Part shown: positions 2,336 through 22,727 of the stretch, piece by piece
How positions within the stretch are numbered: the first letter of the stretch is position 1
Layout: the number at the start of each line of letters is the position of its first letter
IMG/VR virus record: IMGVR_UViG_3300020160_000150
Span: 1-22,727 of that record
Length of the DNA: 22,727 nt
Origin: a virus
Reading direction: 5' to 3' (one strand)
Notes under the pieces: model-generated
Database searches by the model: none
Seen by the model: only the letters and a program-made list of their open reading frames with translations
Told to the model about the DNA's origin: nothing
Made by a program: the position numbers and the translations under genes

Positions 2336-3016
2336 TTGGCAGTTTTTGGATACACTCGCGTCTCGACTGAAGACCAGATTGAGAACACATCCCTCGACGA
2401 TCAAGCACGCCAAATCCAAGGCATCGCGCTCACACATAATTTGGAACTGGAGCATATCTACGAAGAGCGCGGCGTCTCCGGCGGTGTCCCACTGCTACGC
2501 CGAGAAGAAGGCTGCAAGCTGGCGTTCCTCCGGCCGGGCGATACTGTTATCGTATCGAAGCTAGACCGTATGTTCCGTGACGCACGGGACGCACTAAACG
2601 TGATCGCCGACTGGGAGACGGCGAACATCAACCTAATCATCAACGGCTACGGCAATGTGATGGACAAGGCCAACCCGAACGGCCGCTTCATGCTAGAGAT
2701 CATGGCCGTCTTCTCCGGTGAGGAGCGCCGCCGTATCAGAGAACGTGTCACCGCCGGTAAGAGAGCGAAGAAGTCACAAGGTGGATACGTCGGTGGCAAA
2801 GTGCCATTTGGATTTAAGAAGTCGGGAACAGGCCGCAAGGCCAAGCTGCATCCAGAACCAAACGCGCAGGACGCATTGATCACCATGAAAGCCGCACGCG
2901 TTAAAGGTCATAGCTACCGCGATATTGCTATTATCGTAGCAAAGCGTCATGGTATCACGGTAAGCCATCAAACAATCGCACGAGTAATTAGGGGAGATAA
3001 AAATGCAGAAGTCTGA
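2336..3016 (+). CDS. Serine recombinase, resolvase/invertase type, 226 aa
   Basis: A small serine site-specific recombinase. The catalytic domain starts at the N-terminus with YTRVSTEDQ, giving nucleophile Ser10 and Arg8. SKLDRMFRD (74-82) matches the conserved KLDR segment with its active-site Arg78, and the helix SGEERRRIRERVTAGK (127-142) is the usual E-helix start. A C-terminal stretch, about 188-220 (GHSYRDIAII ... TIARVIRG), looks like a helix-turn-helix. The length fits small resolvases or invertases, not the 450+ aa large serine integrases. The start is TTG at 2336 with GGAG 7 nt upstream. The 3' end overlaps terL by 14 nt. Possible roles are resolving genome concatemers or dimers, inversion, or a regulator that binds near the packaging genes. 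No crossover site is recognised. Confidence 0.9.
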   Translation: MAVFGYTRVSTEDQIENTSLDDQARQIQGIALTHNLELEHIYEERGVSGGVPLLRREEGCKLAFLRPGDTVIVSKLDRMFRDARDALNVIADWETANINLIINGYGNVMDKANPNGRFMLEIMAVFSGEERRRIRERVTAGKRAKKSQGGYVGGKVPFGFKKSGTGRKAKLHPEPNAQDALITMKAARVKGHSYRDIAIIVAKRHGITVSHQTIARVIRGDKNAEV

Positions 3017-5232: not shown

Positions 5233-7599
5233 ATGGCGTATCGCAATAACCGTAAGCCGAGTAAGGCCGACATGGCTAAGAACCAAGGAATGTACCAAGA
5301 TACTGGTGTTCCCAACGCCAACTCTGAACACGGCGATAGCGAAGACGATACCAAAGAGACGGAGATTGAACTCGCTGACGGTACGGAAGTTTCCATTGAA
5401 GAGCCGGATATGGAAGACGAGCAGGTAGAAGACCCTGTATCCGAAGAAGAACTTCAGAACATTATCACCGCCGAGATTGACGACGCGCAGAATTACATCG
5501 ACGATGATATCTCGCCGCAGCGTGCGCTTGCGGGCCAGTACTATAAGGGCGAACCGTTCGGCAACGAAGAGGAAGGCCGGTCGCAGGCAATCTCTATGGA
5601 CGTGCGCGACACCGTGCAGGCCATGATGCCGTCGATTATGAAAGTATTTTTCGCGGCGAACAACGTCGTCGAGTTTGCGCCGAACGGCCCAGAGGATGTT
5701 GAAACTGCGCAGCAAGCGACGGATTACGTCAACTACTGCCTGACACGCGACAACAACCTATTCAACGAATGCTACTCCTCATTTAAGGACGCGCTGATCC
5801 GTAAGAACGGGATCATGAAAGTCTGGTGGGATACCGAAAAAGATGTCACGACCCATTACTTCACGGGTCTGGACGAGGCTACGTTTTCTGTCCTTCAGTC
5901 CGACCCTACCGTCGAAGTTAAGGACGTAGAGATTACTTTCGGCGAGACGATGACCGAAACGCCGATGGGCATGATGGGCCAAACTCAGCCTGCGACCTAC
6001 GACTGTACAGTAGTCCGTACAGTTGAGAAGGGCCGTCTGCGCGTTCAATCCGTACCGCCCGAAGAGTTTCTGATTGACCGCCGTGCGCGTTCTATCGAGA
6101 CCGCCGAGTTTGTAGCACACCGCCGCTACGTCACCGTATCCGATCTTGTAAAGATGGGCTACGAGTGGGACGAGGTTCAAGACCTTGGCTTTGAAACGCT
6201 TGACGATTTCGAAGGCAACCAAGAAGCCTTTGACCGCAACCCGCAAGCCTTCGTTCAAATCACAGGCCGGACAGATACGACATCGCGCAAAGTCCTTTAC
6301 ATCGAGGGCTATGTGTACGTTGACATGGATGGCGACGGGATCGCGGAACTTTGCCGCGTCTGCGTTGCTGGCACAGCCAACAAGATACTTCACTACGAAG
6401 CCTGCGACTTTAATCCGTTCATAGACTTCTGCCCAGACCCAGAGCCACACACATTCTTCGGCATGTCGATTGCCGACGTGACAATGGACATTCAGCTTAT
6501 CAAGTCGAACATCCTTCGTAACACGCTCGACAGTTTGGCGCAGGCGATCCACCCACGCACGGGTGTTGTTGAGGGCCAAGTCAATCTTGAAGATGTAATG
6601 AACACCGAAGTCGGTGGCATTATCCGTATGCGTGCACCGGGTATGGTGCAGCCGTTCACAATGCCGTTCGTCGGGCAGCAAGCTTTCCCGATGTTGCAGT
6701 ACATGGACGAACTGCGCGAGAACCGTACAGGTATCTCCAAGGCCGCATCTGGCCTCGATGCTAACGCGCTTCAGTCTTCGACCCGCGCTGCGGTTGCGGC
6801 CACGATTACTGCTGCGGCGCAACATATCGAACTGATCTGCCGTATCTTTGCCGAGACGGGCATGAAAGACCTGTTCCGCAAGTCGATGCAGCTTATCGCC
6901 AAGAACCAAGACGCACCGCGCATGGTGCGTTTGCGCAACACGTTCGTTCCGATTGACCCGCGTGTGTGGGACACGAACATGGATGTTGTAGTGAATGTCG
7001 CTATCGGCACTGGCAGCAACGAAGAGAAGATGGCATTCTTAGGCCAAGTCGCTGCCAAGCAAGAGATGCTCATGCAGATGGGCGCTCCATTGGTTGACAT
7101 GCAGGGTTACTATAATACACTGGCGCAGATGATGGCGCTGGCTGGATACAAAGACCCAACTGTGTTCTTCAAAGACCCAGCCATGATGCCGCCTCCACCG
7201 CCGCCTGCGCCACCGCAGCCGACACCGGAAGAGATGCTGTCTCAGGTTCAGATGGAAGCGATCCGCGCTGACATCCAGAAGAAGGCAGCCGAACTTGAGT
7301 TGCAGCGCGAAGAGATGCTGCGCAAGGACGACCGTGAGCGCGACAAACTCGACGCCGATCTTATGGTCAAGGCTGCGGAGATTGAAGCCAAGTACGGAAC
7401 GCAGGTCAACACGGCCAACATCGAAGCGTTGATGCAGCGCGACCGTGAGTTCCTACGCCAGCAAGGCGAAATGGATCGAGCAGCCGTGCAGGCCCAACAG
7501 GCCCAGCAAAACGCGCAGATGGCACAGGCCGTCCAACAAGCACAGATGCAACCTGAAATGCCGATGCAACCTGAAATGCCACCAGAAGGAATGATGTAA
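5233..7599 (+). CDS. Portal protein, P22-like, 788 aa
   Basis: The dodecameric portal forms the DNA channel at the capsid vertex and docks the terminase. Recognisable parts are an acidic N-terminal extension (about 30-95), the core with PPEEFLIDRRARSIETAEF (275-293) followed by AHRRYVTVSDLVKMGYEWDE, a DMDGDGIAEL turn (364-373), and the long segment 405-540 containing FGMSIADVTMDIQLIKSNILRN and the RTGISKAASGLDANAL region. These are typical of P22-type portals in podoviruses. Residues 652-665 are proline-rich, and about 666-770 form a Gln/Glu-rich helical or coiled-coil tail, comparable to the P22 barrel. The tail ends with an in-frame duplication of MQPEMP. AAGG lies 8 nt before the ATG. Confidence 0.92.
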   Translation: MAYRNNRKPSKADMAKNQGMYQDTGVPNANSEHGDSEDDTKETEIELADGTEVSIEEPDMEDEQVEDPVSEEELQNIITAEIDDAQNYIDDDISPQRALAGQYYKGEPFGNEEEGRSQAISMDVRDTVQAMMPSIMKVFFAANNVVEFAPNGPEDVETAQQATDYVNYCLTRDNNLFNECYSSFKDALIRKNGIMKVWWDTEKDVTTHYFTGLDEATFSVLQSDPTVEVKDVEITFGETMTETPMGMMGQTQPATYDCTVVRTVEKGRLRVQSVPPEEFLIDRRARSIETAEFVAHRRYVTVSDLVKMGYEWDEVQDLGFETLDDFEGNQEAFDRNPQAFVQITGRTDTTSRKVLYIEGYVYVDMDGDGIAELCRVCVAGTANKILHYEACDFNPFIDFCPDPEPHTFFGMSIADVTMDIQLIKSNILRNTLDSLAQAIHPRTGVVEGQVNLEDVMNTEVGGIIRMRAPGMVQPFTMPFVGQQAFPMLQYMDELRENRTGISKAASGLDANALQSSTRAAVAATITAAAQHIELICRIFAETGMKDLFRKSMQLIAKNQDAPRMVRLRNTFVPIDPRVWDTNMDVVVNVAIGTGSNEEKMAFLGQVAAKQEMLMQMGAPLVDMQGYYNTLAQMMALAGYKDPTVFFKDPAMMPPPPPPAPPQPTPEEMLSQVQMEAIRADIQKKAAELELQREEMLRKDDRERDKLDADLMVKAAEIEAKYGTQVNTANIEALMQRDREFLRQQGEMDRAAVQAQQAQQNAQMAQAVQQAQMQPEMPMQPEMPPEGMM
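7545..7580 (+). repeat. 18-bp perfect tandem duplication at the portal 3' end
   Basis: Bases 7545-7562 and 7563-7580 are identical (each starts GATGCAACCTG). The duplication is in frame and encodes MQPEMP twice, a few residues before the portal C-terminus. It is probably a recent slippage duplication tolerated in the disordered tail. Confidence 0.9.
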
Positions 7600-9419
7600 T
7601 GGCAGCAGTTATGGCTCTAGAGGATATGGCGTTCGGGGACTATGGCCTCGGTGGCCCGCTGCTTGGCGCGGAAGTAGTCGGTTCCGATCTCGCTAACACC
7701 TTGCTCGGTGGTCCTGAGCAGGGTGGCTCGTACACTGGGGGCATGGGTGCTGGCCCCAGCCGGACAGAAGCAGAACGCCTAGCGGCCATATTAAATGTAA
7801 ACCCGTATGTCGCGCCCAGCGCGGATATGAACCTCGACCCGATTACAAGCCTGCGAAGTGGCGGGCAGACCGGTTATTACTTTGCAAACGAACTGGGATT
7901 GCCTGCGCGTTACGGTGATGCGGGGACACCCGGCTTTGTGCCTGTTGACCAGAACGCCTCGTATCGCCTTGTTAAAGGCGGGACAGATGGCAATGTCGTA
8001 TATTCGGGCGCAGGCGAAGCGGGTTTGCGCAACGTATTTGAGCAAGCCAATAAACTTACTTTGGACAATCCCAAAAACGCCTATTGGGGCGTCGAAGTTC
8101 TTGACCCCGCCACTGGCCAATACAAGCGCGTAGCAGAGAACAAAGGCCCGAACGGCCTCGGCATCGTTGGTGACATTGCAGGCGTGGCGCTACCTGTCGC
8201 CGCTGCTATCGCAACCGGCGGCGCAAGTCTTGGTGTCCAAATCGCGGCAGGCGCCGCGGCCGGTGGCCTTGGCGGTTTCTTAGCGGGTAAAGACCCGCTT
8301 ACGTCGGCGCTAATTAGCGGTGTGACCGCTGGCCTTGGCAACGTGACCGGTGCTAACGAAGCGATTGGCGGGGTACTTAGCGACGTAGGCAGTAGTGTTT
8401 CAAATGCCTTTGCGAGTGAAGCTGCAAAAGAAGCCGCCAAGCAGGCGGTGGCTGAACAAATCCTCGTCACTGGCCTTTCAAAAACCGCGCAGGGCGCTGC
8501 GTCTGGATTGCTTCAAAGTGCTGTATCGGGCGTAACTGGCAACTTGTCTTCCCCGACAACCCAGCCAACACCGGCACAGCAACCTGTACAAGAACCTGTA
8601 CAACAACCACCCGCCGAAGCCGCTGTTAAACCTATTGTCGTCAGTGGGGTTAAAGCTGGATCGGGATTGCCATTCGCATCCGCCGTCCCCGTGCCTGTCG
8701 AGGCAATCCTTAACGGAACACTGGCGCAGCCTACACCGAAGCCGCAGCCTACAACGGAAGAGCAGTACGCCGACGAACCTATTGTTGTTAGCGCGTACCG
8801 CCCAATAAACCCCGTTGGCGGTTTCGACCCTACATCTGTTTCCAAAGATTTGATTGGTCTTGGTGGATCAGTGGCCGCAACATTACCTGCGCTCACTGAA
8901 CTGGCTATGGACCCGACGCTGACACAACCACAGCCTGAAGATATTGTCGTGAGCGGTAACCGGCCTGTACCAAAAACCGTCGTTCCTGATGAACTAGCCG
9001 CTATTCTGCCATTGCTTCCGCAACTCGGTATACCGCAGGTTCCAACTCCTGATCCCGCATTGACGGAGAAGGGCGGCGTTCTCGGCACGGGCCTAAACGT
9101 ACCCCAACTTATATCCCTTGGCAGTGTCGGGGCCGATCTTCTGAAAAACCTTTTGGCTGGCGGTGGTGGCGCAGAAACAGGAGTGCCGTATGTTTCTCCG
9201 TTCGGTACAGGCGCGGGCGTAGGTTTTGGCACAGGCCAAGATATGCGCGCCAATCCAACCATCTTAGATTACGAGCGGTATGGTTTCGGCCCAGAAGCTA
9301 TGTTCTTCCAGCCGGGCTACGGCCTCCTTAATTCTGCGGCTCCTGCACCGTCCCCTGCTTTTCTACCTCAAGCACAGCCGATTATGGCAACCAACCCTAG
9401 ATATGAGCCGTTGATCTAA
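7599..9419 (+). CDS. Glycine/proline-rich virion-type protein with repeated IVVSG motifs, 606 aa
   Basis: Starts at the TAATG junction with the portal (1-nt overlap). I do not recognise a named family. Residues 1-185 look folded (Gly/Tyr-rich, with a DPATGQYKRV turn). Residues 190-265 are a Gly/Ala-rich, glycine-zipper-like hydrophobic stretch (VALPVAAAIATGGASLGVQI ...) that could insert in a membrane. Residues 318-345 and 376-390 are Pro/Gln-rich linkers. Four similar motifs follow one another about every 50 residues: QILVTGLSK (287), PIVVSGVK (345), PIVVSAYRP (394) and DIVVSGNRP (448). The C-terminus is Gly/Phe/Pro-rich. Its place between portal and scaffold suggests a virion component, perhaps internal or ejected. 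The IVVSG motifs resemble TonB boxes. Confidence 0.85.
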   Translation: MAAVMALEDMAFGDYGLGGPLLGAEVVGSDLANTLLGGPEQGGSYTGGMGAGPSRTEAERLAAILNVNPYVAPSADMNLDPITSLRSGGQTGYYFANELGLPARYGDAGTPGFVPVDQNASYRLVKGGTDGNVVYSGAGEAGLRNVFEQANKLTLDNPKNAYWGVEVLDPATGQYKRVAENKGPNGLGIVGDIAGVALPVAAAIATGGASLGVQIAAGAAAGGLGGFLAGKDPLTSALISGVTAGLGNVTGANEAIGGVLSDVGSSVSNAFASEAAKEAAKQAVAEQILVTGLSKTAQGAASGLLQSAVSGVTGNLSSPTTQPTPAQQPVQEPVQQPPAEAAVKPIVVSGVKAGSGLPFASAVPVPVEAILNGTLAQPTPKPQPTTEEQYADEPIVVSAYRPINPVGGFDPTSVSKDLIGLGGSVAATLPALTELAMDPTLTQPQPEDIVVSGNRPVPKTVVPDELAAILPLLPQLGIPQVPTPDPALTEKGGVLGTGLNVPQLISLGSVGADLLKNLLAGGGGAETGVPYVSPFGTGAGVGFGTGQDMRANPTILDYERYGFGPEAMFFQPGYGLLNSAAPAPSPAFLPQAQPIMATNPRYEPLI

Positions 9420-10699: not shown

Positions 10700-11662
10700 A
10701 TGGCTATTGTAGCAAATACTTTTACCCGGTACTCCGCTATCGGTATTCGTGAAGACCTGTCGAACGTTATCTATAACATCTCGCCAGAAGAAACCCCGTT
10801 CATTTCGAACATCGGCCGCGAGAGCGTCAAGAACACCTACTTCGAATGGCAGACCGACGCTTTGGCTGCGGCTTCAGCTTCTAACGCTGCACTCGAAGGT
10901 GACGACATTTCTTCGTTCACTGCTGTTACGCCAACCGCCCGCGTTGGTAACTACACGCAGATCAGCACGAAGAACGTCGTAATCTCCGGTACGCTTGAAG
11001 CAGTCGATAAGGCTGGTCGTCGTAACGAAATGACCTATCAGCTTGCAAAGCTGGGTTCGGAACTGAAGCGCGACATGGAAAGCGCATTGCTTGCCAACCA
11101 AGCTGCTGTTGCGGGTAACACCACAACTGCACGTCGTACCGCTGGTCTGCCTGCATGGTTGACCTCGAACACTTCGTCCGGTTCAGGTGGTGCAAACCCA
11201 ACTGTAGGCTCGACCCCAACTGCTGCTCGTACCGATGGTACGCAGCGTGCGTTCACAGAAACACTGCTTAAGGGTGTTATCCAGAGCGTCTGGACTTCGG
11301 GTGGCACGCCAAAGATGTTGATGGTTGGTCCGTTCAACAAGACCGCCGCTTCTGCCTTCACCGGCATTGCGACGCGTTATCGTGACGTTCCTGCTGGCCA
11401 GCAGGCACAGATCATCGGCGCAGCCGACGTTTATGTGTCTGACTTCGGTACAGTCAACATCGTTCCTAACCGCTTCCAGCGTGACCGTGACGCGTTCATC
11501 GTCGATCCCGATTACGCATCGTTGGCGGTTCTGCGTCCAATCCAGAAGATGGACCTCGCCAAGACGGGCGACGCCGAGAAGGCTCTCCTCCTCGTCGAAT
11601 ACGGCCTCAAGGTAAACAACCAAGCTGCGCACGGTATCGTAGCTGACTTGACCACCTCGTAA
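10700..11662 (+). CDS. Major capsid protein, SU10/DUF5309-like, 320 aa
   Basis: The main shell protein, HK97 fold. Features of the SU10-type (DUF5309) family are the N-terminal NTFTRYSAIGIREDLSNVIY, then SPEETPFISNIG, YFEWQTDALA, the TARVGNYTQISTKNVVISGT segment, the long helix ELKRDMESALLAN, and the C-terminal IVPNRFQRDRDAFIVDP. The length is normal for the family. A Gly/Ser/Thr-rich loop at about 150-175 may be surface-exposed. AGGATG precedes the ATG. The gene follows scaffold by 15 nt and is followed by the strongest hairpin terminator in the window, which suggests separate dosage control for the capsid. Confidence 0.94.
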   Translation: MAIVANTFTRYSAIGIREDLSNVIYNISPEETPFISNIGRESVKNTYFEWQTDALAAASASNAALEGDDISSFTAVTPTARVGNYTQISTKNVVISGTLEAVDKAGRRNEMTYQLAKLGSELKRDMESALLANQAAVAGNTTTARRTAGLPAWLTSNTSSGSGGANPTVGSTPTAARTDGTQRAFTETLLKGVIQSVWTSGGTPKMLMVGPFNKTAASAFTGIATRYRDVPAGQQAQIIGAADVYVSDFGTVNIVPNRFQRDRDAFIVDPDYASLAVLRPIQKMDLAKTGDAEKALLLVEYGLKVNNQAAHGIVADLTTS

Positions 11663-19421: not shown

Positions 19422-19491
19422 TGGGCTGTCAATCTATTTTGTTTTGTGTTAATAACGAAGGATTAGGCGGTTAGGCCGCTTGGGGAATATA
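19422..19491 (+). other. AT-rich intergenic leader before the internal virion proteins
   Basis: A 70-nt gap in an otherwise tightly packed run. It holds an AT-rich stretch (TTTTGTTTTGTGTTAATAA, about 19437-19455), which could contain a weak promoter, and a short GCGG-TTAGG-CCGC hairpin (19467-19479) directly before the GGGGA ribosome binding site of the next gene. The hairpin could modulate translation. No better -35/-10 pair was found. Confidence 0.35.
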
Positions 19492-20340
19492 ATGGCGACA
19501 ACTACCACAACTGCACAGCAACTCAATCCTTTCATTCAGGATATTCTGGCGCGTAACTATGGAGCCGCACAGCAAGTCGCGGCTATTCCTTATCAGGCTT
19601 ATCAAGGTCCGCGTGTTGCAGGCTTCCGCCCCGCTGAAGAGCAGGCGTTCGGTGTTGCCACCCGCGCTGCTACTGAGCAAGTCGGGATGCCGCAACTTCA
19701 GCAGGCCACCCAAGTTGCTCAGCGTGCAGCCGGATATTCGCCACAGCAGTTTCAGCAAGATGTCTCCGGCTTCATGTCGCCGTTCCAGACCAACGTCATC
19801 GACGCCACGATGGCCCGCTTGGCACAGAACCGCGCCGAGCGTGATGCCGCAACAAAGGCTCAGCTTGCCTCATCGCGGGCATTCGGTAACGAACGCCGTG
19901 GTGTATACGAAGCACAGCTTGCAGGCGAAGAAGATTTGAATACGGCTCAGACGCTGGCGAACCTGTATAATCAGGGATACACGCAAGCCGCTGGGTTTGC
20001 ACAGGGTCTGCCGGGTCAGCAGCTTGCGGGTGCGCAAGCCTTGTCTGGCTTTGGCCAACAGGCGCTTGGCAACGAGCAGGCATACGCGGCAATGCTTCAG
20101 GGCGTTGGACAGACGCAGCGCGGCATGGCTCAGCAGAACCTTGATCTGGCCTACAAGGACTTCCTCGAACAGCGCGGCTTCCCGCAGCAGCAGCTTCAGA
20201 CTTTGCTCATGGGTTCGCAGGGTCTTCCTTCCCCAGTCACGCAAACGACAACTGCACCGGGCCAGTCAACGCTCGGCCAAGTTGGTACGGCTGCGTCCGC
20301 GATTGGCACTATCCTTGATCTGTTTGCTAAGAAGGGTTAA
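19492..20340 (+). CDS. Gln/Ala-rich virion protein, probably internal, 282 aa
   Basis: The start is the ATG at 19492 (MATTTTTAQQLNPFIQDILA) with GGGGA upstream. A TTG at 19480 would start within that leader. The motif YQAYQGPRVAGFRPAEEQAF (34-53), the central SRAFGNERRGVYEAQ and the helical Gln/Ala-rich body are characteristic of a protein found near the nozzle in many marine and freshwater podoviruses. It ends in a hydrophobic LFAKKG after a Gly/Thr segment (GTAASAIGTILDLFAKK). The high Gln/Ala content and lack of domains fit internal core proteins that leave the capsid with the DNA. Function inferred. Confidence 0.8.
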   Translation: MATTTTTAQQLNPFIQDILARNYGAAQQVAAIPYQAYQGPRVAGFRPAEEQAFGVATRAATEQVGMPQLQQATQVAQRAAGYSPQQFQQDVSGFMSPFQTNVIDATMARLAQNRAERDAATKAQLASSRAFGNERRGVYEAQLAGEEDLNTAQTLANLYNQGYTQAAGFAQGLPGQQLAGAQALSGFGQQALGNEQAYAAMLQGVGQTQRGMAQQNLDLAYKDFLEQRGFPQQQLQTLLMGSQGLPSPVTQTTTAPGQSTLGQVGTAASAIGTILDLFAKKG

Positions 20341-21288: not shown

Positions 21289-22727
21289 ATGGCCGAGGCG
21301 AAGCCGCAAGGCAACCCAGTATTCCTTGAAATTCCGGCCACTGGGGAGACGATCACGCTTCCCGGCGTAACGTCGCTTAACAGTAACGATGAACTTAAAG
21401 CTGCGGCCGATGCTTGGATCGCAAAGAATTATAAAGGCCCCCTGCTTGCGGCTCCTGTTGTCGCACGAACGCCAGCGGAAGGCGAGAGTGTTGTTACCGC
21501 TAACCGTCAGCCGGAACTAACCGCAGTTACCCCGACCACAATTACGGGCGGCGTCTATGACGCACTTGCTTCTGGCGTTGCGAATGTAGCAGGTCTGCTT
21601 CCCGGCTTTGATGAGCGCGGCGCTGTCCAGTACGGCCAAGATGTAGTGCAAAATATCGAAAGCCTTCTTGGCCTTCAGGCAATCGAGCAAAGTATCGGTG
21701 ACGTTTTAGTAGGTCGTGGCACTGGTACTGATTACCTAACCGCCGGGCTTACCGCCGCGCCATTTGTGGGTAGGCCTATAGCGGCCGGTGTCAGGCGTGC
21801 CGCGCCAGAACTTAGCGCGGCTGTCAGTCGTTTAGCTACTGGCCCCAGCGCGGCTCCGAGGGCTGCGCTCTCTCCGGAGATGGCCGCAGTTGCTACGCCT
21901 GTTGCTCCGGCCCCTGTTGTGCCGAGCAAGCTGCCAAAGGCGCAGGCTATCGAGTTGCCGGAAGCCCCCGTGGCCGCAGCGGCAATCCCTGAAGCTGCGG
22001 TAGCACCGCGCAATGTGGCGTATGATCTACCAGCATCTACTCCCGAAACAGGTATGCCCGCCATCGCGGCTATGGAAGTAAAGGGCCAGACGCAGCCTGT
22101 ACCCACCGCTGAAATTGGTGGTAAGGTCGCTAACTTTGCCGCAGACTATAGCAATCTTGCTGGGCTGCAACGCCCGGCCGATATGCCGTTCTCTGAGTTC
22201 TTCTATCGCCACTTTAAGGCAGGCACTCTTCCCGAAGAAGAGGTGTCTAAACTCGTCACGAAGTACGACCTTAAAGACGAAGACCTGTTCGAACTTATCA
22301 CGGGATCACGCCAAGGTCTTGGCGATGCCGCTCGTGTTATGCAACGGTTCAGCATGGCCAGCCGTTACGTTCCTAGAGAAGCCGCCGACATCGCTAAACT
22401 TGGCATTCAAGAAGCGGATGATCTTGGCTTTTGGAAACGACTAACCAATGCCTATCGCGGCGCGCTTGTGTCAAGCGTGGCTACCACAATGCGCAACGTC
22501 GTGTCCTCTGGTGTCCGCGTACCTATCGACGTAGCAACGAACCTTATGGACACCACGGTTAACGCTGCGGCTAATCCCTTCCGCCAACAGAAGGTTGGCG
22601 TTAGCCCATTTGATGCAGCGGCTTTGCTTACGGATCGTTTTGCTCCGGGTCGGAACACTAAGTTCTGGGAGCAAATGAAGAACGTCCAGCCGGAAATTAA
22701 CAAGGAACTCGCGGCTACTTACGCCGC
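21289..22727 (+). CDS. Large virion protein, 5' part only, at least 479 aa
   Basis: Open from the ATG at 21289 to the right edge without a stop. AGGA sits 7 nt before the start. Residues 1-60 form a small beta/alpha domain (PVFLEIPATGETITLPGVTS ... ELKAAADAWIAKNY). SVVTANRQP (67-75) resembles the motif of the 606-aa protein. Residues 85-185 are Gly/Ala-rich and partly hydrophobic (GRPIAAGVRRAAPEL), 190-260 are Pro/Ala-rich, and from about 290 the sequence becomes helical (PFSEFFYRHFKAGTLPEEEV, DAARVMQRFSMASRYVPREA). It then continues into a segment (FWKRLTNAYRGALVSSVATT) that resembles the large internal proteins of podoviruses. It is likely an ejected virion protein. The C-terminus is not in the window. 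Confidence 0.82.
   Translation, partial: MAEAKPQGNPVFLEIPATGETITLPGVTSLNSNDELKAAADAWIAKNYKGPLLAAPVVARTPAEGESVVTANRQPELTAVTPTTITGGVYDALASGVANVAGLLPGFDERGAVQYGQDVVQNIESLLGLQAIEQSIGDVLVGRGTGTDYLTAGLTAAPFVGRPIAAGVRRAAPELSAAVSRLATGPSAAPRAALSPEMAAVATPVAPAPVVPSKLPKAQAIELPEAPVAAAAIPEAAVAPRNVAYDLPASTPETGMPAIAAMEVKGQTQPVPTAEIGGKVANFAADYSNLAGLQRPADMPFSEFFYRHFKAGTLPEEEVSKLVTKYDLKDEDLFELITGSRQGLGDAARVMQRFSMASRYVPREAADIAKLGIQEADDLGFWKRLTNAYRGALVSSVATTMRNVVSSGVRVPIDVATNLMDTTVNAAANPFRQQKVGVSPFDAAALLTDRFAPGRNTKFWEQMKNVQPEINKELAATYA

What the first reader, a model, noticed from the sequence alone, without database searches (positions are those of the whole stretch)
8457..8966. Four TonB-box-like motifs spaced about 50 residues apart in a virion-type protein
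Seen: the 606-aa protein contains QILVTGLSK, PIVVSGVK, PIVVSAYRP and DIVVSGNRP at residues 287, 345, 394 and 448, separated by flexible Pro/Gln-rich linkers. Known: TonB boxes of TonB-dependent transporters and some colicins have the pattern D/E-T/I-x-V-V-T/S-A/G (for example DTIVVTA in FepA), and alphaproteobacterial receptors often begin with an IVVTG-R pattern. Inferred: the repeats could be virion-borne TonB-box mimics that recruit TonB or energise DNA or protein entry, or they could be processing or docking signals. The match is short, so coincidence is possible, but the four in-order copies in linkers are unusual.
Basis: partly seen in the sequence, partly recalled or inferred. Interest (0 to 1): 0.72.

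Follow-up and report, generated by a model that had tools for sequence, protein, structure and literature searches.

The report
TonB-box repeats in phage ejection proteins
A short-tailed phage encodes probable ejection proteins whose floppy linkers repeat the peptide that outer-membrane transporters use to hook onto the bacterium's TonB energy machine, which suggests, but does not yet prove, that the virus plugs into that machine when it enters the cell.

Summary
The 606-aa protein (7599-9419) carries four IVVSG-type motifs in a predicted-disordered region. In 59 non-redundant metagenomic relatives the core motif occurs 105 times against 1.9 in shuffles. Usually 1-3 copies (up to 6) sit in linkers that drift (pN/pS 0.37 in motifs, 0.69 in flanks). 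A strict TonB-box pattern searched over all of IMG/VR returned 21 stretches, 16 of them in clear or distant relatives of this protein. A weight matrix made only from 25 real TonB boxes of bacterial transporters put family members in 63 of the top 67 places among 1955 ORFs (column-permuted matrices: mean 6, maximum 23).

The same matrix exposed a second box in the window, GESVVTANR at 21481-21507, in another ejection-cassette protein and kept in about three quarters of its relatives (EEIRVTANRQPEL). The one named relative, Caulobacter phage RW gp066c, lies directly upstream of the DNA ejection protein.

Best reading: internal (ejection) proteins present TonB-box motifs in the periplasm, where they bind host TonB, probably to draw on proton-motive force during entry. 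TonB binding and dependence are untested. The host is unknown, with indirect signs of Alphaproteobacteria. No held paper reports virion TonB boxes.

The parts
7599..9419 (+). 606-aa protein bearing the motifs; probable internal (ejection) virion protein
   Evidence: ORF; 80 IMG/VR relatives; distant relative gp066c of Caulobacter phage RW lies beside DNA ejection protein
8454..8483 (+). TonB-box-like motif 1, EQILVTGLSK; I288 and V290 nearly invariant in the family
   Evidence: TBDT matrix score 11.4 bits
8628..8657 (+). TonB-box-like motif 2, KPIVVSGVKA
   Evidence: (8.8 bits)
8775..8804 (+). TonB-box-like motif 3, EPIVVSAYRP
   Evidence: (12.4 bits)
8937..8966 (+). TonB-box-like motif 4, EDIVVSGNRP, the best match of the four to real TonB boxes
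   Evidence: (16.8 bits)
7926..8147 (+). Only confidently folded part (residues about 110-183, strands and one helix)
   Evidence: AlphaFold2 pLDDT about 80-94; the equivalent region of L058 is 35% identical to Caulobacter phage RW gp066c
8151..8285 (+). Hydrophobic Gly/Ala-rich segment (residues 185-229), candidate membrane-inserting part
   Evidence: hydropathy up to 2.0 over 19 residues; 51 of 56 relatives exceed 1.6
9063..9416 (+). Conserved C-terminal region (residues 489-606; GVLGTGL ... DYERYGFGPEAMFF)
   Evidence: invariant columns of A1
21289..22727 (+). Last ejection-cassette protein, cut by the window end (about 1000 aa in relatives)
   Evidence: 44 relatives; distant match to a protein of SAR116 phage HMO-2011
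21481..21507 (+). TonB-box-like motif GESVVTANR in the last ejection-cassette protein
   Evidence: low-confidence linker in AlphaFold2
19480..20340 (+). DNA ejection protein (phrog_4287), context
   Evidence: homologue of phiM5 and Caulobacter phage RW proteins; the phiM5 gene at that place is annotated as found in the particle proteome
5233..7599 (+). SU10-type portal protein, context
   Evidence: PF23899, E=1.4e-209
10700..11662 (+). SU10-type major capsid protein, context
   Evidence: PF17236, E=3.1e-104

Best explanation
The 606-aa protein is an internal (ejection) protein of an SU10-like short-tailed phage. Its disordered linker is studded with TonB-box linear motifs, and a second ejection-cassette protein carries one more. 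[quoted passage not shown] Several boxes in series give repeated or multivalent capture. The pull of ExbB-ExbD-TonB then most likely helps draw out, anchor or open the ejection channel, so that proton-motive force contributes to protein or DNA entry. Shown: the motifs, their conservation, their predicted disorder, their resemblance to real TonB boxes, and the ejection-cassette context. Inferred: virion location, periplasmic exposure, TonB binding, energy use. The confidence given is for TonB binding by ejected proteins; the energy-use step alone is about 0.4.
For: Motif enrichment in 59 relatives, 105 against 1.9. Stronger purifying selection on motif codons (pN/pS 0.37) than on flanks (0.69) or the rest (0.48). 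Copy number varies, usually 1-3 and up to 6, while the motif persists. The strict pattern [DE][DE]IVVTGx[RS]P over all IMG/VR gives 21 stretches, 16 in ORFs related to this protein. A matrix built only from alphaproteobacterial TBDT boxes places family members in 63 of the top 67 of 1955 ORFs; permuted matrices give a mean of 6, max 23. The same matrix ranks the last cassette protein 1-12 of 1120 ORFs; its box is conserved as (E/G)E(I/S)xVTANRQPEL in 32 of 44 relatives, pN/pS 0.30 against 0.44 after it. Both boxes lie in low-confidence linkers. The named relative gp066c of Caulobacter phage RW lies directly before DNA ejection protein gp065c and near an SLT transglycosylase protein, and has VDEIVVTP. 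Colicins taken up through TonB carry TonB boxes (PMC11658791); klebicin E has one in a disordered N-terminus (PMC10906532); SU10 ejects five internal proteins that may form a periplasmic channel (PMC9509320).
Against: No binding, infection or proteomic data for this phage. Host unknown: no relative in GTDB genomes. TonB boxes are short and loosely defined, so similarity cannot prove binding. The Caulobacter phage RW version is weak (DEIVVTPSQ, 10 bits). Three of the window's four motifs carry S rather than T at position 5, and some relatives have N or K there. A few relatives lack the motif (L146-L148), and SU10-like isolates outside this lineage lack it, so it is not essential to the SU10 type of entry.
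Confidence: 0.55

Rival explanations
1. The motifs are strand-forming peptides that bind a phage protein (portal, scaffold, capsid or another ejection protein) and hold or order the protein inside the capsid; likeness to TonB boxes is convergence of strand-addition peptides.
For: TonB boxes act largely through backbone strand pairing, so any strand-addition peptide could look similar (PMC11658791). The gene lies between portal and scaffold. Two proteins of one cassette share similar motifs.
Against: Likeness extends beyond the IVV core to the acidic residue before, T/S-G/A, and the R/K two residues after the G/A, as in real boxes; permuted matrices do not find the family. SU10-like isolates with homologous portal and capsid but without this gene lack the motif.
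Confidence: 0.2
2. The protein is delivered or made in the cell as a TonB sponge: several boxes tie up TonB, blocking TonB-dependent uptake and superinfection by phages that need TonB.
For: Multiple boxes in a disordered chain suit titration. A TonB-box consensus pentapeptide is reported to inhibit TonB-dependent processes in vivo (Tuckman and Osburne 1992, cited in PMC7142613; known here by title only). T5 blocks a TonB-dependent receptor with a lipoprotein (PMC9586334).
Against: No obvious signal peptide or lipobox at the N-terminus as read by eye, so periplasmic access needs ejection. Ejection-cassette context of the relative and a box in a second cassette protein fit entry better than exclusion.
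Confidence: 0.13
3. The motifs are cleavage or processing sites for a capsid protease.
For: Regular spacing in a disordered chain.
Against: No capsid protease found among the ten window proteins searched. Copy number varies up to 6, and a strand-type IVV core is not a typical cleavage signal (own knowledge).
Confidence: 0.04
4. Chance or compositional bias of low-complexity linkers.
For: Short motif; low-complexity region.
Against: 105 against 1.9 in composition-preserving shuffles; lower pN/pS than flanks; permuted-matrix control.
Confidence: 0.01

Closest known systems
TonB box of TonB-dependent transporters (TBDTs)
   Same: Acidic residue, I/L-V-V-T/S-G/A, then R/K; lies in a flexible segment; the phage motifs are recognised by a matrix made only from TBDT boxes.
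   Different: TBDTs have one box before a plug and a beta-barrel. Here there are several boxes in the middle of a protein with no Pfam match at all, so no plug.
TonB-dependent bacteriocins (colicins B, M, Ia; klebicin E)
   Same: A foreign protein carries its own TonB box in a disordered region to use TonB for entry (PMC11658791; PMC10906532).
   Different: Bacteriocins have an N-terminal box and a toxic domain. Here several internal boxes, no toxin domain found, and a probable virion protein.
SU10 (Kuravirus) ejection proteins gp20-24
   Same: SU10-type portal, capsid and adaptor; an ejection cassette at the end of the structural genes.
   Different: No gene like this one between portal and scaffold in SU10, and no strong TonB-box match in its ejection proteins.
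Caulobacter phage RW gp066c (QDH50427.1)
   Same: Distant homologue: folded domain 35% identical, YGxGPEAxFF C-terminus, hydrophobic Gly/Ala segment, VDEIVVTP in a Pro-rich linker.
   Different: Weaker box, different gene position, and an extra C-terminal module like that of tape-measure proteins.
Filamentous phage pIII with TolA/TolQR
   Same: A virion protein contacts a proton-driven trans-envelope motor related to TonB-ExbBD during entry (PMC10424213).
   Different: Uses the Tol system by domain and transmembrane contacts, not TonB-box motifs, in a single-stranded DNA phage.
Phages T1 and phi80 (TonB-dependent infection)
   Same: Need TonB and proton-motive force (PMC11658791, for T1; phi80 from own knowledge).
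   Different: Dependence runs through the receptor FhuA and its own TonB box, not through a phage-borne one.

Membership tests
TonB box (linear motif binding TonB) | Consensus acidic-hydrophobic-x-V-T/S-A/G | tested here: met
   Matrix from 25 TBDT boxes: family 63 of top 67; 8.8-16.8 bits for the window's four motifs
TonB box (linear motif binding TonB) | Lies in a flexible, accessible segment | tested here: met
   AlphaFold2 pLDDT below 50 around all four motifs and the second box; low confidence is only a proxy for disorder
TonB box (linear motif binding TonB) | Conserved against its surroundings | tested here: met
   pN/pS 0.37 against 0.69 in flanks
TonB box (linear motif binding TonB) | Binds the TonB C-terminal domain | not testable with these tools
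   Needs binding assay or complex structure
TonB box (linear motif binding TonB) | Function depends on tonB/exbBD and is lost on proline substitution | not testable with these tools
   Needs infection tests
TonB-dependent transporter | Plug domain and 22-strand beta-barrel | tested here: not met
   No Pfam match; no Plug in the record
Podovirus ejection (internal virion) protein | Encoded in or beside the ejection cassette | tested here: inconclusive
   Relative gp066c in Caulobacter phage RW directly precedes DNA ejection protein gp065c, but in the window itself the gene lies between portal and scaffold
Podovirus ejection (internal virion) protein | Present in the particle and lost on genome release | not testable with these tools
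   No proteome of this phage; for phiM5 the syntenic internal proteins are annotated as detected in particles
Podovirus ejection (internal virion) protein | Sequence match to a known ejection-protein family | tested here: not met
   No PHROG match for the window protein; a few relatives match tape-measure families weakly
SU10-like (Kuravirus-type) head module | SU10-type portal, capsid and adaptor | tested here: met
   PF23899, PF17236, PF24175

The most novel reading that the evidence does not exclude
A lineage of tailed phages carries its own TonB boxes on two ejected virion proteins and couples directly to the host Ton motor, so that proton-motive force helps pull the ejection apparatus or genome through the envelope without relying on a receptor's TonB box.
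Probability: 0.4. Interest if true: 0.9.

Novelty: new variant of a known kind. Interest (0 to 1): 0.76.

Why it matters
How short-tailed phages finish genome delivery after capsid pressure is spent, and whether they tap proton-motive force, is an open question. Virion-borne TonB boxes would name a specific motor and a specific contact and make the question testable by peptide binding and deletions. It would also join phages to colicins as users of Ton through their own boxes, and it gives a sequence signature for finding other TonB-using phages.

Tried and rejected
Chance: rejected by shuffles, pN/pS and permuted-matrix controls. Retrieval bias (some search peptides abut the motif): recounted on loci fetched by C-terminal patterns only, 58 of 64 still have it. 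Recent tandem duplication of the window's copies: codons differ. TBDT gene or fragment: no Pfam match. Named relatives by direct tblastn: none for P0001, found only through L058 and fold search. Host by GTDB genome scans: none. Short-peptide tblastn against plasmids and phages: no matches, uninformative. IVVTG pattern in alphaproteobacterial plasmids: at most three hits, none shown to be in a TBDT, because boxes there mostly read VVTA. PDB fold search: no significant match. Literature: 'TonB box' or 'TonB-box' with phage gave no report of a box in a virion protein, judged from titles and abstracts.

Full report
WHAT IS THERE. The window is a 22.7-kb IMG/VR virus record with an SU10-type head module: portal PF23899, major capsid PF17236 and adaptor PF24175. 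The finding's protein, 606 aa at 7599-9419, follows the portal and precedes the scaffold gene. It has no Pfam or PHROG match and no direct match in 50,697 phage records. The four motifs are at 8454-8483, 8628-8657, 8775-8804 and 8937-8966, with different codons in each copy.

IS IT MORE THAN CHANCE. Eighty IMG/VR loci encode relatives. In 59 representatives the core motif occurs 105 times (54 proteins) against 1.9 in shuffles; adding the acidic residue gives 84 against 0.2, and adding R/K gives 48 against 0.005. Examples are DDTIVVTGARP, DEIVVTGTRP and EEIVVTGTRP. Copy number ranges from 0 to 6, usually 1-3. In 1599 pairs of relatives motif codons have pN/pS 0.37, the 20 residues on either side 0.69, and the rest 0.48. 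Pairs are not independent, so these figures are descriptive. Most relatives that fail the strict expression keep a variant such as GEIVVSKYRP or EDIVVNAP; L146-L148 truly lack it.

IS IT SPECIFIC. A strict pattern for [DE][DE]IVVTGx[RS]P over the whole IMG/VR collection returned only 21 stretches. By my count, sixteen of these lie in ORFs matching this family: fourteen clear and two weak (L089 and L095, E=1.7e-5). L087 carries EDIVVTGARPGAV in a fragment whose family was not established. L094 is a tail tube protein of a 199-kb contig, and L084/L097 are short ORFs of unknown family. A rough estimate by hand gives about two random matches.

DOES IT RESEMBLE REAL TonB BOXES. I collected 25 TonB boxes from TBDTs on Novosphingobium, Sphingobium and Methylobacterium plasmids, located with the Plug profile, for example EDIVVTATR, GDIVVTAMR and NTILVTGLR. 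A matrix from these alone ranks family members in 72 of the top 80 of 2424 ORFs. On loci fetched without using the motif, 63 of the top 67 of 1955 ORFs are family members; 60 column-permuted matrices gave a mean of 6 and a maximum of 23. Limits: the boxes were picked with a loose regular expression, and the matrix is dominated by sphingomonad sequences.

A SECOND BOX. The matrix's best hit in the window itself is not the finding's protein but GESVVTANR (21481-21507, 17.8 bits) in the last, truncated ORF. Its relatives (44 loci) are about 1000 aa long. Thirty-two of 44 keep the segment as (E/G)E(I/S)xVTANRQPEL or close variants, such as GEEIRVTANRQPEL and SEEINVTANRQPEL. They fill ranks 1-12 of 1120 ORFs, with pN/pS 0.30 in the box and 0.44 after it. 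Two unrelated proteins of one phage carrying the same kind of box is the strongest new argument for a common partner.

WHERE THE BOXES SIT. AlphaFold2 on 57 relatives finds one confident domain (residues about 110-183); all four motifs lie in segments with pLDDT below 50. The second box lies in the low-confidence stretch 58-107 (the whole model is poor). Low confidence is a proxy for disorder. A hydrophobic Gly/Ala-rich stretch at 185-229 occurs in most relatives, as expected of a membrane-inserting ejection protein.

IS IT A VIRION PROTEIN. No particle proteome exists for this phage. The one named relative is gp066c of Caulobacter phage RW. It lies between a virion structural protein (phrog_3287) and gp065c, a DNA ejection protein (phrog_4287), followed by gp064c and gp063c, which has an SLT transglycosylase domain. 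It has VDEIVVTPSQP in a Pro-rich linker and the YGxGPEAxFF C-terminus. The window's own ejection protein (19480-20337) is homologous to a Sinorhizobium phage phiM5 protein annotated as detected in particles. Ejection-protein status is therefore supported by context but not shown.

HOST. No relative was found in GTDB genomes. Pointers to Alphaproteobacteria are the serine recombinase closest to Gluconobacter and Methylobacterium plasmids, capsid relatives including Sinorhizobium phage phiM5, relatives in Caulobacter and SAR116/Roseobacter phages, and the alphaproteobacterial style of the boxes. These are indirect.

MECHANISM. TonB boxes pair with the TonB C-terminal domain by strand addition and transmit a pull powered by proton-motive force (PMC11658791). 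Bacteriocins carry their own boxes (PMC11658791, PMC10906532). SU10 releases five ejection proteins that may form a periplasmic channel (PMC9509320). The most economical reading is that ejected proteins present boxes to TonB in the periplasm to gain force or anchorage. Rivals are a phage-internal binding partner and a TonB sponge. Sequence alone cannot separate these.

NOVELTY. Phage need for TonB via a receptor is classical (T1), and pIII of filamentous phages contacts TolQR (PMC10424213). I found no report of a TonB box in a virion protein in the held open-access library; most subscription journals and bioRxiv preprints are not in it.

Noticed in passing
window 21481-21507 and L200-L241: A second, conserved TonB-box-like segment, (E/G)E(I/S)xVTANRQPEL, near the N-terminus of the large ejection-cassette protein; not in the finding.
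   Followed up: yes
L094:2513-3454 (-), 198.6-kb contig: Tail tube protein (phrog_45) of a large myovirus with N-terminal ELDEIVVTGRRPTSG, the highest matrix score outside the family; a single case fetched by the pattern, may be chance.
   Followed up: partly
L084:6995-7381 and L097:1934-2284: Short related ORFs (117-129 aa) with FPMEDIVVTGGSPV in other phages; family unknown.
   Followed up: no
window 7599-9419 relatives (L002-L149): The linker region is mosaic: cassettes such as NVVDGVDQDTGEIVVSKYRPINPPGGFDP recur in otherwise different relatives, suggesting exchange of motif modules by recombination.
   Followed up: no
Caulobacter phage RW gp066c and L089: These relatives have a C-terminal stretch that matches several tape-measure profiles (GPGTGRSDSI... 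module).
   Followed up: no
window 2336-3016: Serine recombinase beside the terminase of an SU10-like head module, closest to Gluconobacter and Methylobacterium plasmid recombinases; MW202879 also has a resolvase gene.
   Followed up: partly
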